Assembly: GCA_021771715.1 (NCBI GenBank)
Contig: JAETOO010000005.1
Coordinates: forward strand, 186,001-250,000
Direction: 5' to 3'
DNA: 64,000 bases
Source: Oscillospiraceae bacterium
GTDB taxonomy: Bacteria > Bacillota > Clostridia > Lachnospirales > Lachnospiraceae
The translations under genes were made by a program, and so were the position numbers. Positions 3,066-59,893 of the stretch are shown piece after piece. The notes under the pieces are model-generated. The model searched no databases. It was given only the letters and a program-made list of their open reading frames with translations, and was not told where the DNA came from. How positions within the stretch are numbered: the stretch's first letter is position 1; the number at the start of each line of letters is the position of its first letter.

Positions 3066-3557
3066 AAAAAAGCATTCATCAAATTATGTATTATACTATG
3101 TTTGAGGGGGCATTGCAAGGAAAAGACGGAGAAGAAATGGGAAAAGGACAAGCAAAAGTTACGGTTCAATGAAATCCGGACGAGAAGGTAGCAGGGCCGT
3201 CCGAAAGCTCCAAATCGCTCGTCTACAAGTTCTAAGGTCTCAAAATACCTGCGCAGCTGCCGCTGGCAACTCGAAAAATGTGCATGATGCACATTTTCCT
3301 CAGACAGAGCCAGCTAAAAATCCTGCTTGAACGCAGGATTTTTACAGTTGCTCCGGCATTCTGAGACCTAAGAACTTGTAAAGACTCGCTACAGTCGCTT
3401 ATTCAAAATCTTCAAGGTTACAGTTTCACTCTCGGCTCTGGTAACTTTTCAAGTCTTGCGTTGTATCTATCATAACAATTTAAGAAAGAAATGAAAAGGA
3501 AATTTGGAAAGAAATAAAAAAGGATAAATAATAAATATAGGAAGGAACTAGGTCAAA
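3066..3557. other. Intergenic region between divergent aspS and recombinase genes
   Basis: This 490-bp stretch holds the degenerate copy A of the structured repeat (3176-3399) and an AT-rich stretch (about 3470-3550) that probably contains the recombinase promoter. No credible gene was found. A 91-residue minus-strand ORF here is simply the translation of the repeat. Confidence 0.6.
3176..3399. repeat. Structured intergenic repeat, copy A (degenerate right end)
   Basis: It is clearly homologous to copies B (16731-16972) and C (20024-20265). It keeps the inner stem (TACAAGTTCTAAGGTCTC against GAGACCTAAGAACTTGTA), the AAAATGTGC/GCACATTTT hairpin and the AAAAATCCTGC/GCAGGATTTTT hairpin. The inner stem differs from copies B and C by compensatory changes (AAGTT/AACTT instead of CGTAC/GTACG). 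The left terminal segment is present but the matching right terminal segment is not recognisable, so the outer stem is broken. It lies between divergent genes. Confidence 0.8.
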
Positions 3558-16613: not shown

Positions 16614-16730
16614 AAGAGATTGCGGAATGATCGGGAACTGTGTGTTTGGGTTTGGTTTGCTGGCGATTTGTTCTTGTTTTTTGGGGGAAAATACGGTAGG
16701 ATAAGGTGACAGGTGCATATGGAACCGGAC

Positions 16731-16972
16731 GAGAATCATGCAGGGCCGCCGGAACGCTCCGAATCGCTCGTCTACACGTGCTAAGGTCTCAGAGAGCCTG
16801 CGCATCTGCCGCCGGCAACTCACAAAATGTGCCGGATGCACATTTTGCTCAGACAATGCCGGCTAAAAATCCTGCAAGAATGCAGGATTTTTGCAGGTGC
16901 TCCGGCTTTCTGAGACCTAAGTACGTGTAAAGACTCGCGATAGTCGCGATCCGGCGGCCCTGCATGATTCTC
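16731..16972. repeat. Structured intergenic repeat, copy B (intact)
   Basis: This 242-bp element has perfect 23-bp inverted ends (16731-16753 and 16950-16972). Inside it a long stem pairs ACACGTGCTAAGGTCTCAG with CTGAGACCTAAGTACGTGT. A branch closed by GCCGGCA/TGCCGGC carries an AAAATGTGC/GCACATTTT hairpin, and a second hairpin is AAAAATCCTGC..GCAGGATTTTT. It is the same length as copy C. The inverted ends differ from copy C at four adjacent positions on the left and the complementary positions on the right. It is located between the divergent kinase operon and dppA. Confidence 0.88.
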
Positions 16973-17079
16973 TGATTGTGGCTGGCATGACGTTTTGGCG
17001 GCTCTGCATGGATTCTCTGGTTGTGGTTGGCATGACGTTCCGGCGGCCTGTATGATTCTCTGGTTGTGGCTGGCATGAA
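16953..17079. repeat. Tandem repeat of 44-45 bp extending from copy B
   Basis: There are nearly three units, starting at GGCGG (16953, 16997 and 17042). Each has the pattern GGCGGC-CTGCATG-ATTCTCTG-TTGTGG-TGGCATGA. The first unit includes most of the right inverted end of copy B, so the repeat arose by amplifying the edge of that element. Confidence 0.85.
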
Positions 17080-17140
17080 CTGGTAACAGAAGGAAGTTGA
17101 AAACAGGATAATTATTATATGTAGAAGGGAAGGATTGGGA

Positions 17141-17935
17141 ATGAAGGTATATATCAGTGTTGATTTTGAAGGGGTGACGGGGTCGACCTCGTGGAGTTCG
17201 ACGAATCTTGGGGATATTGAGCATGCGGCGATCGCTGCGCAGATGAAGGCGGAGGCGATGGCGGCCGCGAAGGGAGCGATCGAGGCGGGGGCCGATGAGG
17301 TCTACATTAAGGACGCGCATGATTCGGGGCGGAATTTTGACATTACGGGGTTTCCGCGGCAGTGCCGGTTTATCCGCGACTGGATGTGCAGTCCGGAGTC
17401 GATGGTCGGCGGACTGACGCCGGAGTTTGACGCGCTGCTGTATGTCGGTTACCACAGTCCGGCGGGCTCGGACGGCAGCCCGCTGAGCCACACGATGAAC
17501 CGCGGGAACAACTATGTGAAGCTCAACGGAGCGCTGTGCAGCGAGTTTTTGATGCACGCCATGTACGGCGCGGAGCTCGGCGTCCCGTCGGTCTTCCTGA
17601 GCGGCGACAAGGCGCTCTGTGAGCATGCTCACGCGTTTGACCCGAAGCTGCGCACTGTGGCGGTCAAGGAGGGCGTCGGCTGCGCGACGATCAGCATCAC
17701 GCCGGAGGAGGCGTGCGAGCGGATCCTAAGCGGCGCAAGGGATGCGGTCGAGCATCGCGGGGAGTGCCACCTGGATGTGCCGGAGACGATCACGATGGAG
17801 ATCTGCTTCAAGGATCACTACCGCGCACGCACGGCCGGCTTCTACCCGGGCGCACGCCAGACCGGGCCGTACACGGTGGAGTACACCGGAAGGACGATGC
17901 GCGAGGTCATGACCTTCCGGATGTTTGTGCTGTAA
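17141..17935 (+). CDS. dppA: M55-family D-aminopeptidase (DppA-like)
   Basis: The 264-residue zinc peptidase releases N-terminal D-amino acids from short peptides. Ligands match those recalled for Bacillus DppA: Asp8 and Glu10 (SVDFEG), His60 (KDAH), His105 (VGYHSPAG) and Glu135 (CSEF). The ATG at 17141 makes the protein begin MKVYISVDFEG as in the family. An in-frame TTG at 17135 is less likely. It is a single gene with copy B and a tandem repeat upstream. A role in recycling D-Ala peptides from peptidoglycan is plausible, and other peptidases lie at 21.6-25.4 kb. Confidence 0.92.
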   Translation: MKVYISVDFEGVTGSTSWSSTNLGDIEHAAIAAQMKAEAMAAAKGAIEAGADEVYIKDAHDSGRNFDITGFPRQCRFIRDWMCSPESMVGGLTPEFDALLYVGYHSPAGSDGSPLSHTMNRGNNYVKLNGALCSEFLMHAMYGAELGVPSVFLSGDKALCEHAHAFDPKLRTVAVKEGVGCATISITPEEACERILSGARDAVEHRGECHLDVPETITMEICFKDHYRARTAGFYPGARQTGPYTVEYTGRTMREVMTFRMFVL

Positions 17936-17981
17936 TCGGTTGTAGGAAAATATAGGGTTTGGTTTCGAATTTGCCTTCCGG

Positions 17982-18641
17982 TCAGAATTCCTTCTGCTCC
18001 ATGATCCTGCCGGAGATGCAGCAGGATGCGGCGAGCGCGAGGATTCCGAGAGCCAGCAAGCCGAGGATCAGGACGGGCGCGGAGGCCGTTTTGATCCAGG
18101 CGGTCAGGGGTGTGAGGTTGATGGGGAATGTTTTGACGTATTTCGCTGCGAGGACGCCCCCGAACACGGACACGCCTATGATGCCAAACAGGACGGTCTG
18201 CGCCTTCTCAGAGCCGAATTTCAGCTTGACCGGGATTGCGAGCGATAAAAACAGGAATGTCCCGATCAGGTATGCCAGGGAGACAAAGAGGTACTCTCCG
18301 ATGTCAAGCGGCGCATCCTGGCGCACACTGGAGAACACAGTGGTCAGGATCAGCGTGAATCCCCAGGAGCAGAGCGCACAGAGGGCGGAGAAGAGGTATT
18401 TCTCTCTCACGTATTGTCCGCGTGTGACCGGCATGGTGAACAGATACGGCATTCCGTTCTCAAACTCGTCGTAGGAGATCGAGTTGAGGGTGAAGCTCGC
18501 GAACAGCAGCGTCATGTAGGCGGTCACGAAGTAGACTTTCGCGCCTGTCGCGAGCATGAAGCAGCTGATCCCCAGGATCATGATGAGAAATCGGAACTGC
18601 ATTTTTAAGAGTTTCAGGTCTTTGATCAGTAAGCCTTGCAT
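17982..18641 (-). CDS. ABC-2 type permease of a GntR-controlled exporter
   Basis: The 219-residue protein has about six hydrophobic helices and the features of the ABC2_membrane_5 family (start MQGLLIKDLKLLKMQFRFL, then ISYDEFENGMPYLFTMPVTR). It is the membrane partner of the ATPase encoded just upstream. The permease-ATPase-GntR(YtrA) layout matches Firmicute exporters that respond to cell-envelope antibiotics or peptides. The site AGGAGG precedes the ATG. Confidence 0.88.
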   Translation of the reverse strand: MQGLLIKDLKLLKMQFRFLIMILGISCFMLATGAKVYFVTAYMTLLFASFTLNSISYDEFENGMPYLFTMPVTRGQYVREKYLFSALCALCSWGFTLILTTVFSSVRQDAPLDIGEYLFVSLAYLIGTFLFLSLAIPVKLKFGSEKAQTVLFGIIGVSVFGGVLAAKYVKTFPINLTPLTAWIKTASAPVLILGLLALGILALAASCCISGRIMEQKEF

Positions 18642-18693
18642 AGCTTGTATTCCTCCTGTCAGATAAAGAGAGTCGGGCGGCTGCGGCGAATGC

Positions 18694-19545
18694 TCAGCAG
18701 GGCTGTTCGCCGCATGCCATCATCAGGATGGTCTCGTCGATGCTGCCGTTTTCGATGACGAGCTGCGGATAGTTGTCGTGGTAAAACTGTTTTTGATTCG
18801 TCAGGCAGTCGTAGCCGTAGCCGGTCTGCTTTGCCCGCAGAAGCTTCGAGCGGTCGATGGTCTGGTACTGCTCCTGTGTCACCTTCAAGAGGCCGTAGTC
18901 GGCGAGCAGCACGTCGGTGTCCTCGTGCAGGACGATTTTGCCGTCGTCGATCAGGTAGAGGTCGTCGCAGAGCCCTTCGAGATCCGCCGAGACGTGGGAG
19001 CTGATCAGGATCGCCCGGTCCTCCTGCTCCATGTAGGCGCGCAGCCGGTTCAGGAGGCGGTCTCTCGCGACGACATCCAGCCCCGCTGTGGGCTCGTCCA
19101 GAATCAGCAAACTTGCGTTGTGAGACAGGGCTGCAAGCAGCTGGAGCTTGCGTTTCATCCCGGTCGAGAACTCCTTGATTTGCTTGTCAAGCGGAAGCCT
19201 GGAGGCTTTACACTCGCGGGTGAAGGCTTCCCGGTCAAAGGCGGAATATATCCGGTCGAGCACGGGAAGATAATCCTGGATCGTCAGATAGCCGTTTAGG
19301 CCAGAGTTTGACAGGACGACGCCGATCCGCTCCCGGTCCGCTGTACTAAGCTCCTGGGGGCTTTTGCCGAACAGCTCCACCGTTCCGCCGTCCGTGGAGA
19401 TCAGGCCCAGGATTGCCTTGAAGCAGGTGGTCTTCCCGGCGCCGTTTTTGCCGATCAAACCGGTGATCCGGCCGCGCTCCAGTTTCATCGAGCAGTCCAG
19501 TGTGAAGCTGCCGTATTGTTTTTGCATATGTTCCAGCTTAATCAT
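18694..19545 (-). CDS. ABC transporter ATP-binding protein
   Basis: The 283-residue ATPase shows Walker A (GLIGKNGAGKTT, about residues 31-42), an LSGGQ-equivalent (EFSTGMKRKLQLL), Walker B with catalytic Glu (LLILDEPTAGLD) and the H-loop (ILISSHV). The ATG at 19545 with GGAGG is used. The upstream in-frame codons extend into the GntR gene. It powers the ABC-2 permease downstream and is the second gene of the GntR operon. Confidence 0.93.
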   Translation of the reverse strand: MIKLEHMQKQYGSFTLDCSMKLERGRITGLIGKNGAGKTTCFKAILGLISTDGGTVELFGKSPQELSTADRERIGVVLSNSGLNGYLTIQDYLPVLDRIYSAFDREAFTRECKASRLPLDKQIKEFSTGMKRKLQLLAALSHNASLLILDEPTAGLDVVARDRLLNRLRAYMEQEDRAILISSHVSADLEGLCDDLYLIDDGKIVLHEDTDVLLADYGLLKVTQEQYQTIDRSKLLRAKQTGYGYDCLTNQKQFYHDNYPQLVIENGSIDETILMMACGEQPC

Positions 19546-19549
19546 AATC

Positions 19550-19921
19550 TTACTCCTCCAGTACAATCAGAAATAGCTCTTTCAGATCGGTATCGCTCAT
19601 ACCGCAGCTTCTGCCCTTCCGGATGGCCGTTTCCAGATCGGCTTCCACCTCTTTTTTCTTCTCCTCGAGCATCCGTTCCTGGTTGGCACAGGCTACGAAG
19701 GTTCCCTTACCGTGTACGGTGATGACGAAGCCCTCCTGCTCCAGCGCGTCGTACGCCTTTTTGACGGTCAGTGCGCTGATCTTCAGATCCTTCGCGAGGG
19801 TGCGCACGGAGGGAAGCATGGTCTCTTCTAAGAGCAGGCCCTTCATAATGTTCTGCCGGATCTGATCGGCGATCTGGTCGTAGATCGGCTGCATCGAGGA
19901 ATGGTTGATAATCAGATTCAT
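19550..19921 (-). CDS. GntR-family regulator, YtrA subfamily
   Basis: The 123-residue repressor-type protein has an N-terminal winged helix (QPIYDQIADQIRQNI..LPSVRTLAKDLKISALTVKKAYDALEQEGF, residues 11-75) and a short helical tail typical of YtrA rather than a ligand-binding FadR/HutC domain. It is the first gene of the ABC exporter operon and ends 4 nt before the ATPase ATG. A palindromic operator overlaps its promoter, so autoregulation is likely. GGAGG precedes its ATG. Confidence 0.93.
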   Translation of the reverse strand: MNLIINHSSMQPIYDQIADQIRQNIMKGLLLEETMLPSVRTLAKDLKISALTVKKAYDALEQEGFVITVHGKGTFVACANQERMLEEKKKEVEADLETAIRKGRSCGMSDTDLKELFLIVLEE

Positions 19922-19945
19922 GGGTATCCTCCTTAAGTAGGTGAT

Positions 19946-19992
19946 AACAGTATATAACAGTGTAGAACTGTTGTCAACTGTTATATACTGTT
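19946..19992 (-). promoter_or_regulatory. Promoter and palindromic GntR operator of the ABC exporter operon
   Basis: A perfect 16-bp inverted repeat (19946-19961 AACAGTATATAACAGT and 19977-19992 ACTGTTATATACTGTT) has its half-sites 31 bp apart, about three helical turns. Within it on the minus strand lies a near-consensus promoter: TTGACA (19972-19977), 17-bp spacer, TATACT (19949-19954). Each half-site covers one promoter box, as expected for repression by the adjacent GntR protein. Confidence 0.82.
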
Positions 19993-20023
19993 AATTTTGG
20001 AAAAGTTCAGTCGCGGTGCGGAC

Positions 20024-20265
20024 GAGAAGATTGCAGGGCCGCCGGAACGCTCCGAATCGCTCGTCTACACGTACTAAGGCCTCAGAATGCCTGCGCATCT
20101 GCCGCCGGCAACTCGCAAAATGTGCCGGATGCACATTTTACTCGGACAGTGCCGGCTAAAAATCCTGCAAGAATGCAGGATTTTTGCGGATGCTCCGGCA
20201 TTCTGAGACCTAAGTACGTGTGAAGACTCGCTATAGTCGCGTTCCGGCGGCCCTGCAATCTTCTC
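20024..20265. repeat. Structured intergenic repeat, copy C (intact)
   Basis: This 242-bp copy has perfect 23-bp inverted ends (20024-20046 and 20243-20265) and the same nested stems and two hairpins as copy B. The end sequence differs from copy B (GAGAAGATTGCAG against GAGAATCATGCAG), but each pairs perfectly with its own partner. It lies between the GntR operon promoter and the terminator of tRNA-Pro. Confidence 0.88.
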
Positions 20266-20335
20266 TGACAGTGAATGGCTGAACTGTATTAAAGGGCGTA
20301 GCGTCTATGTCATAAGGGGACAAATTTTTCTATGA

Positions 20336-25447: not shown

Positions 25448-25577
25448 GTCTCTTCCCGGATCTGCAGCAGCTCCGTTCGTCCGTATCCTTCCGGACACTT
25501 TTTTTCATTATATAGCAATCGACGGTATATTGCAATTCTCTTTTGCCGGGAATTATTTAATGACTGACTGAAAAACA

Positions 25578-25661
25578 TTGCAGTTCACCCAGGACGCCAT
25601 GCAAGCCGCAGACCGCAAGCTATCCGCCGCTACGCGGCTCCTGTCTGTGGCTGAACTGTAA
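25578..25661. repeat. 84-bp nested inverted repeat
   Basis: The outer ends TTGCAGTTCA (25578-25587) and TGAACTGTAA (25652-25661) pair with one mismatch. An inner stem AGCCGCAGAC/GTCTGTGGCT and an innermost GCCGC/GCGGC complete a cruciform-like structure. It shares GGCTGAACTGTA with the flank of copy C (20278-20289). No coding is visible. Confidence 0.5.
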
Positions 25662-25670
25662 CCCGAAAAT

Positions 25671-44341: not shown

Positions 44342-44600
44342 AAAAATGCTCCGCCCCATGAAGGGACGAAGCGTAATGTTCCGTGGTACCACCCTGATTC
44401 CTGCCGTGCGGCAGGCACTCCTGTACGCGTAACGTGCGTCTGCGTCGCTGCCTACCGGGAACCGGGTACGGGACTGTTCAGCAGCGAGGCTCCGGTGTGA
44501 AATTCGATCCGCGTCTGAACCTGAGGAGCTTCCAGCCGATGACATCCTCTCTCTGTCGGAAAACGCTGCACTACTTTGCACCATCTGCGCCTGTGACTGT
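44342..44600 (-). promoter_or_regulatory. T-box riboswitch of pheST, Phe specifier
   Basis: On the minus strand the conserved T-box (AGGGTGGTACCACGGAAC, 44378-44395) precedes a terminator stem (GCTTCGTCCC/GGGGCGGAGC) with a T-run ending at 44342. An antiterminator can form through the T-box. The upstream stem I region contains a likely specifier loop GAATTTCACACC, where TTC reads phenylalanine. Uncharged tRNA-Phe should promote readthrough. Confidence 0.93.
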
Positions 44601-59757: not shown

Positions 59758-59786
59758 TTGAAATCAGGCAGTCTTTTTAGTATACT
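59758..59786 (+). promoter_or_regulatory. SigA-type promoter of pgi
   Basis: TTGAAA (59758-59763) and TATACT (59781-59786) are separated by 17 bp. They lie about 108 bp before the pgi start. Confidence 0.75.
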
Positions 59787-59893
59787 ATGAAAGTAGACCG
59801 ATAGGTCGGATTGCGAATACCGGGGCGATTGCGGGAGTGCAAAGCACGGAGCAATCGACTTTCATACAAGATCTTTCAAAGGAGGGAATCACA

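What the first reader, a model, noticed from the sequence alone, without database searches (positions are those of the whole stretch)
16731..20265. 242-bp structured intergenic element with co-varying perfect inverted ends
Copies B (16731-16972) and C (20024-20265) are the same length. Each has 23-bp ends that are perfect inverse complements. The two copies differ at four adjacent positions in the left end, and the right end carries exactly the compensating changes. Inner stems also show wobble and compensatory differences, including in copy A. Preserving pairing rather than sequence is what selection on RNA or cruciform structure, or transposition with intramolecular repair, would leave. I do not recognise the element as a known family.
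Basis: partly seen in the sequence, partly recalled or inferred. Interest (0 to 1): 0.8.

Follow-up and report, generated by a model that had tools for sequence, protein, structure and literature searches.

The report
Mobile DNA hairpin with self-matching arms
A small mobile DNA hairpin is scattered dozens of times through this bacterial genome, and its two arms keep changing together so that they still pair, in a way that looks like DNA copying one arm from the other rather than like an RNA gene.

Summary
BLAST finds 40 places in this genome (40 of 61 candidates scored, so a lower bound); 31 hold complete copies of 241-243 bp. In these, 55 of 94 base pairs have changed on both sides, against 25.8 in shuffles. 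Young copies lie inside a 290-bp element with terminal repeats (GTTACAGTTCAGCC) shared by other small elements, ten of 24 of which have 7-8 of 8 matching target-duplication bases (control: at most 5). So the carrier is MITE-like; I found no transposase. In old copies the terminal repeats have decayed almost to background, yet pairing is unchanged (96.6% against 96.7%) and unpaired core positions stay 88% identical. The covariation does not look like RNA selection: wobble pairs do not exceed A-C mismatches (31 v 48 of 2914 cells; SRP RNA control 440 v 18 of 1989), and half of the double changes are transversion-type (80 of 162; SRP 19 of 82). I favour DNA-level copying of one arm from the other, in a core held by an unknown sequence-specific constraint. 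Rfam has no match above cut-off.

The parts
16726..16981 (+). Copy B: conserved unit (5-nt tail, 242-bp branched hairpin, 9-nt tail)
   Evidence: limits from conservation in old copies
16731..16757 (+). Copy B left end arm
   Evidence: 26 of 27 complementary to 16946-16972
16946..16972 (+). Copy B right end arm
16973..17090 (+). Drifted tandem repeats of copy B's right end (period 43-45), outside the hairpin
   Evidence: direct repeats 16966-17002, 17011-17047, 17054-17090; compared
20019..20274 (+). Copy C: conserved unit
20024..20050 (+). Copy C left end arm
   Evidence: 27 of 27 complementary to 20239-20265
20239..20265 (+). Copy C right end arm
20115..20140 (+). Copy C first apical hairpin
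   Evidence: helix 5 of the consensus fold
20157..20186 (+). Copy C second apical hairpin
   Evidence: helix 6 of the consensus fold
20276..20290 (-). Decayed right terminal repeat of copy C (13 of 15 to consensus)
3177..3398 (+). Copy A: left and central parts; right outer arm lost

Best explanation
The element is the folded core of a MITE-like non-autonomous transposon. Shown: it lies between outer inverted repeats that also bound other small elements of this genome and that made 8-bp target duplications. Shown: after insertion the outer repeats decay while a core of about 256 bp keeps its unpaired sequences and its pairing. Shown: the pattern of arm changes is unlike that of the RNA used as control. 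Inferred: the arms stay complementary because DNA synthesis on the folded strand copies one arm onto the other (quasipalindrome template switching), so that a mutation in one arm is either undone or passed to the other. Inferred: a sequence-specific constraint, most likely recognition of the folded DNA by a protein, preserves the loops, the constant base GAGAAG/CTTCTC and the two short tails. The factor and its benefit are not identified.
For: Mobility: of 24 elements bounded by the terminal repeat, 6 have 8/8 and 4 have 7/8 duplicated bases, while 8 bp further out none exceeds 5; the repeat occurs 135 times with up to 3 mismatches, reversed control 19. Maintenance after insertion: 18 old copies, terminal-repeat identity 0.30-0.34 (background 0.27) but Watson-Crick 96.6% (10 young copies 96.7%); no correlation of decay with mispairing, rho -0.02, p 0.92, n 31; old copies still score above shifted-flank controls, 14.4 v 12.2 of 33. 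Not RNA-like: GU 31, AC 48 of 2914 cells; SRP RNA GU 440, AC 18 of 1989. Between nearest neighbours 162 pairs changed on both sides and 119 otherwise, SRP 82 and 216; at divergence up to 0.10, 68/67 v 14/55, p 4e-5. Transversion-type 80 of 162 v 19 of 82 (p 1e-4). 32 double changes are private to one copy. Two loop-less derivatives with decayed terminal repeats, L102 and L104, have private matching arms (24 of 27; 13 base pairs).
Against: Many changed pairs are not both-sided (119; 55 private mismatches), so correction is slow or incomplete. No inverted apical loop among 31 copies, though template switching can invert loops. Clustering of joint changes is weak (25 adjacent v 18.1, sd 3.2, p 0.023). 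An A-A opposition is invariant in 31 of 31, which arm copying alone would erase. L103, a loop-less derivative with fresh terminal repeats (13 and 14 of 15), pairs poorly (12 of 27 ungapped). Wobble leans slightly to the minus strand: G000 48 v 31 (p 0.07), with ten G295 copies 71 v 44 (p 0.015), with five G004 copies as well 84 v 62 (p 0.08). Copies are related, so p values are only guides; SRP is the only control RNA.
Confidence: 0.5

Rival explanations
1. A multi-copy structured non-coding RNA spread by a transposon; selection on the RNA fold makes the compensatory changes.
For: Conserved loops with covarying stems, also in other genera; conserved unpaired positions in old copies; minus-strand wobble lean.
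Against: No wobble excess on the + strand and GU 3.3% at most on the - strand, against 22% in SRP RNA; half of double changes transversion-type; conservation ends about 6 nt before and 9 nt after the hairpin in old copies, leaving no conserved flanking promoter; no orientation bias in tandem gene pairs, 9 v 8; no Rfam match above cut-off.
Confidence: 0.17
2. A DNA cruciform or single-strand DNA fold under selection, with arms changing one at a time and no arm copying.
For: Pairing kept in old copies and loops conserved; absence of wobble is expected if DNA pairing matters; one-sided changes exist.
Against: Double transversions as common as double transitions and many private double changes are hard to reach through mismatched intermediates; loop-less L102 and L104 still have matching private arms.
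Confidence: 0.2
3. Ectopic gene conversion between copies replaces whole cores and keeps them alike and paired.
For: Many similar copies in one genome; some stem variants recur in several copies.
Against: The outermost GGACGAGAA and CTTCTCTG are conserved while the next 20 bp inside vary most, the reverse of a conversion gradient; 32 double changes are private to one of 31 copies. Mosaicism was not tested formally.
Confidence: 0.06

Closest known systems
Prokaryotic MITEs (review PMC10969869, passages seen)
   Same: Small, non-autonomous, terminal inverted repeats, short direct repeats from insertion, intergenic, foldable; the review says conservation of the direct repeats wanes over time
   Different: Here a branched core stays conserved and paired after the terminal repeats have decayed; the passages found with six terms did not mention covariation, compensation or Clostridia
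Quasipalindrome template switching (PMC8794818, passages seen; PMC7202029 and PMC8604942, listing only)
   Same: Perfect stems and multi-base compensatory changes made by copying one arm during DNA replication
   Different: Published there for RNA genes, E. coli reporters and yeast genes; here a dispersed mobile element with dozens of independent copies
REP elements / BIMEs (PMC3733652, PMC2817692, listing only)
   Same: Dispersed extragenic palindromes in high copy number
   Different: REPs are given as 20-40 bp; this unit is about 256 bp, branched, and carried by terminal repeats with 8-bp duplications
Structured bacterial ncRNA families (Rfam)
   Same: Covarying stems and conserved loops
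   Different: No match above cut-off and no wobble signature

Membership tests
MITE | Terminal inverted repeats | tested here: met
   GTTACAGTTCAGCC at both ends of young copies, e.g. L010, L014, L016, L020
MITE | Target-site duplication of fixed length | tested here: met
   8 bp; 10 of 24 terminal-repeat-bounded elements match at 7-8 bases, control at most 5; of the five full 290-bp copies 8, 6, 5, 3 and 1 bases match
MITE | An autonomous relative or transposase with the same ends | tested here: inconclusive
   none seen in about 330 bases inward of 14 solo ends, nor as a pair within 3 kb in 20 fetched stretches with a likely gene; the assembly is in 54 contigs
MITE | Insertion against an empty site in a relative | tested here: inconclusive
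   neighbouring gene and usually tRNA-Pro kept in 15 relatives, but the gntR side is not
Structured ncRNA | Covariation of a consensus fold | tested here: met
Structured ncRNA | Wobble pairs far commoner than A-C mismatches | tested here: not met
   31 v 48 on the + strand; 97 v 29 on the - strand fold; SRP control 440 v 18
Structured ncRNA | Known Rfam family | tested here: not met
Structured ncRNA | A stable transcript | not testable with these tools
   no expression data
Template-switch-maintained palindrome | Both arms change together, transversions included | tested here: met
Template-switch-maintained palindrome | Loop inversions | tested here: not met
   none among the apical loops of 31 copies; selection on loops could remove them
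REP element | Palindrome of 20-40 bp | tested here: not met
   242-bp core

The most novel reading that the evidence does not exclude
A bacterial repeat is kept, insertion by insertion and long after its transposition ends have died, as a folded DNA structure: loops, base and tails are held by a constraint while the arms drift freely but in step by arm-to-arm copying. Strong covariation, the usual proof of a functional RNA, would here be made at the DNA level, in a structured-DNA site of unknown function present dozens of times in one genome and with other stems in other genera.
Probability: 0.3. Interest if true: 0.8.

Novelty: new variant of a known kind. Interest (0 to 1): 0.55.

Why it matters
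Covariation is the standard evidence for functional RNA structure. Here is a family of dispersed copies with very strong covariation whose fine pattern (no wobble excess, transversion-type double changes, both arms at once) differs sharply from a real RNA of the same bacteria. It is a many-replicate natural case for testing whether template switching keeps hairpins, and the wobble test could sort DNA-made from RNA-made covariation in other candidates. The loops kept across genera point to an unknown factor that may read folded DNA.

Tried and rejected
Rfam at gathering threshold on the window and at relaxed thresholds on L010 and L096: nothing above a family cut-off for the element. A relaxed match of L096 to a microRNA precursor family (MIR1437, 53.8 bits, cut-off 168, both strands) was put down to its being a long hairpin. 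A pattern scan of genome contigs gave one match, inside what looks like coding sequence (L049), without the element; viral contigs none; plasmids and phages none. Search for an autonomous transposon: 20 stretches around terminal repeats, pairs listed, inward sequence of 14 solo ends read: only further small elements and solo ends. A gene beside a half element in L184 was looked at and dropped because no right end lies beyond it in the stretch. Neighbour genes: 20 of the 39 listed were scanned with Pfam; no common theme. Terminator idea: 1 of 33 copies lies between convergent genes. Leader-RNA idea: no orientation bias. Empty-site test at copy C failed because gntR is not beside the tRNA in the 15 relatives looked at. 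Six literature searches listed no paper whose title or shown abstract describes this family; most subscription papers are not in that library.

Rows dropped: of 40 BLAST places, 9 were left out of alignment A1 (L015 and L022 right end lost; L040 diverged and partly deleted; L026 and L035-L039 cut by contig ends; some of these six may be halves of one copy, so places exceed copies). Of 30 SRP loci, 24 were used (L138-L142 cut or partial, L143 a second copy in one genome). Old copies are those with a terminal-repeat score of 18 of 33 or less, young those with 22 or more; three of 31 fall between. The Fisher test on both-sided against one-sided changes used counts of mispaired states (123 and 252); recounted as pairs it is 119 and 216, and this is what the report gives. 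The pooled wobble test left G004 out; one search adds it.

Full report
What is there. Copies B and C are as described, except that the left ends differ at three adjacent positions, not four. Copy A at 3182-3398 has lost its right outer arm. A BLAST search of the window's own genome (4.18 Mb, 54 contigs) gives 40 strong places, with 40 of 61 first-look candidates scored, so this is a lower bound. Six lie cut at contig ends, and some of those may be halves of one copy. Of the 40, 31 are complete and 241-243 bp long. A covariance search gives the same 31 full-length forward places with scores above 280 bits, and two truncated ones (150 of 1544 candidates scored).

Structure. The consensus fold is one long hairpin: a constant base GAGAAG/CTTCTC, a variable outer stem of about 20 pairs, an asymmetric internal loop, a second long stem, and a junction with two apical hairpins. 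Of 94 pairs, 55 have changed on both sides in at least one copy; 291 cells carry such changes, against 71.3 in shuffles. The outer stem is rewritten in many copies and still pairs.

Mobility. Young copies continue outward into GTTACAGTTCAGCCAACC on the left and TGGCTGAACTGTAAC on the right. This end occurs 135 times with up to three mismatches, against 19 for a reversed control, and also bounds small elements with other insides. In 24 elements with both ends among the fetched loci, the 8 bp on the two sides match fully in 6 and at 7 of 8 in 4; 8 bp further out the best is 5. For the five full 290-bp copies the matches are 8, 6, 5, 3 and 1. This makes the carrier MITE-like. No transposase was seen near the solo ends read.

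Core outlives ends. Copies form a series of terminal-repeat decay from 32 of 33 down to 10 of 33, chance being about 12. In the 18 oldest the terminal stretches are 0.30-0.34 identical between copies (background 0.27), yet unpaired core positions are 0.88 identical, non-variable paired positions 0.84, the variable stem 0.65, and 96.6% of cells are Watson-Crick, as in the 10 youngest (96.7%). Decay and mispairing do not correlate (rho -0.02, p 0.92, n 31). Old copies still score above shifted-flank controls for the terminal repeat (14.4 against 12.2, p 1e-5), so as a group they had it once; single copies at chance level could have lost or never had it. Conservation ends about 6 nt before and 9 nt after the 242 bp.

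RNA or DNA. If an RNA fold were selected, G-U should be far commoner than A-C. As a control I took SRP RNA of 24 genomes, own genome included, from the genus and the order (24 of 30 loci): GU 440, AC 18, of 1989 cells. The element has GU 31, AC 48, of 2914; folded as the minus strand it has GU 97, AC 29, of 2975. Between nearest neighbours (25 pairs) the element shows 162 pairs changed on both sides and 119 changed otherwise; SRP (17 pairs, reaching larger divergence) 82 and 216. At divergence up to 0.10 the figures are 68 and 67 against 14 and 55 (p 4e-5). Of the both-sided changes 80 of 162 are transversion-type, 19 of 82 in SRP. Against my reading, wobble leans a little to the minus strand: 48 v 31 in G000 (p 0.07), 71 v 44 with ten G295 copies (p 0.015), 84 v 62 with five G004 copies as well (p 0.08). 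Copies are related and SRP is a single, wobble-rich control, so p values are guides only.

Arm copying. Joint changes with transversions, and 32 double changes private to one copy, fit DNA synthesis that copies one arm from the other. Two internal-deletion derivatives that lack the central loops and whose terminal repeats are near chance, L102 and L104, have private matching arms: 24 of 27 in L102, 13 pairs at the base of L104. A third, L103, with fresh terminal repeats, pairs poorly (12 of 27 ungapped), and four young ones match at 24-25 of 27. Tandem ghosts of one end have drifted beside L006 (6 of 60), L034 (7 of 46), L053 (7 of 50) and copy B; L006's own 94 pairs are all intact, while L034 has 4 and copy B 5 mispaired. 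The comparison does not say which of the two repeats changed. Also against: no inverted apical loop among 31 copies, an invariant A-A opposition, and only weak clustering of joint changes; these ask for selection as well. Template switching as a keeper of hairpins is published for RNA genes (PMC8794818, passages seen).

Spread. A covariance model finds the element in 6 of 397 sampled genomes of the family, own genome included (3 of 320 good ones); only five candidates per genome were scored, so this is a lower bound. G004 of the same genus also has it; BLAST found it in 2 of 47 genomes of the genus. G295, another genus, has 21 full-model places. In ten of these that I aligned the loop sequences AACTCG, CTCAGACAG and CCTAAG are kept, and TCCGAACCGCT, GATGC and CTCGCTATAGTC with small variations, while the stems are others; in six stretches two cores stand as an inverted pair about 220-325 bp apart, two of them incomplete or partial. 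Their outer ends differ from those of G000.

Context. Of 33 copies with both neighbours called by a simple codon model (L040 included; in L018 and L040 a called frame overlaps the element), 15 lie between divergent genes, 17 in tandem (9 and 8 in the two orientations) and 1 between convergent genes. Twenty flanking proteins scanned belong to unrelated families. This argues against terminator, leader RNA and regulon.

Verdict. A real, strongly covarying mobile hairpin family, without an Rfam match, of a known general kind (MITE), whose covariation is best explained at the DNA level, with an unexplained constraint on its loops after insertion.

Noticed in passing
G000, 135 sites; L105-L112; window 25577-25662: The same terminal repeat bounds several other small-element families with different insides, from 30 to about 290 bp; one candidate of 86 bp lies in the window without a duplication.
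   Followed up: partly
L104 (G000 C15:323400-323640): A 39-bp internal-deletion derivative whose left arm differs from the usual sequence so as to match a right arm made from another part of the element; it looks like a template-switch footprint.
   Followed up: partly
window 16973-17090; L006; L034; L053: Drifted tandem repeats of one end of the element stand beside several copies.
   Followed up: partly
L090, L095, L096, L167, L172, L174 (G295): In another genus two cores stand in inverted orientation about 220-325 bp apart between different outer ends.
   Followed up: partly
L184 (G000 C31:243500-248000): A half element lies upstream of a gene with a partial duplicate of that gene on its other side.
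   Followed up: partly
window 44359-44596 (-) and 59759-59864 (+): Rfam matches to the T-box leader and to Clostridiales-1 RNA.
   Followed up: no
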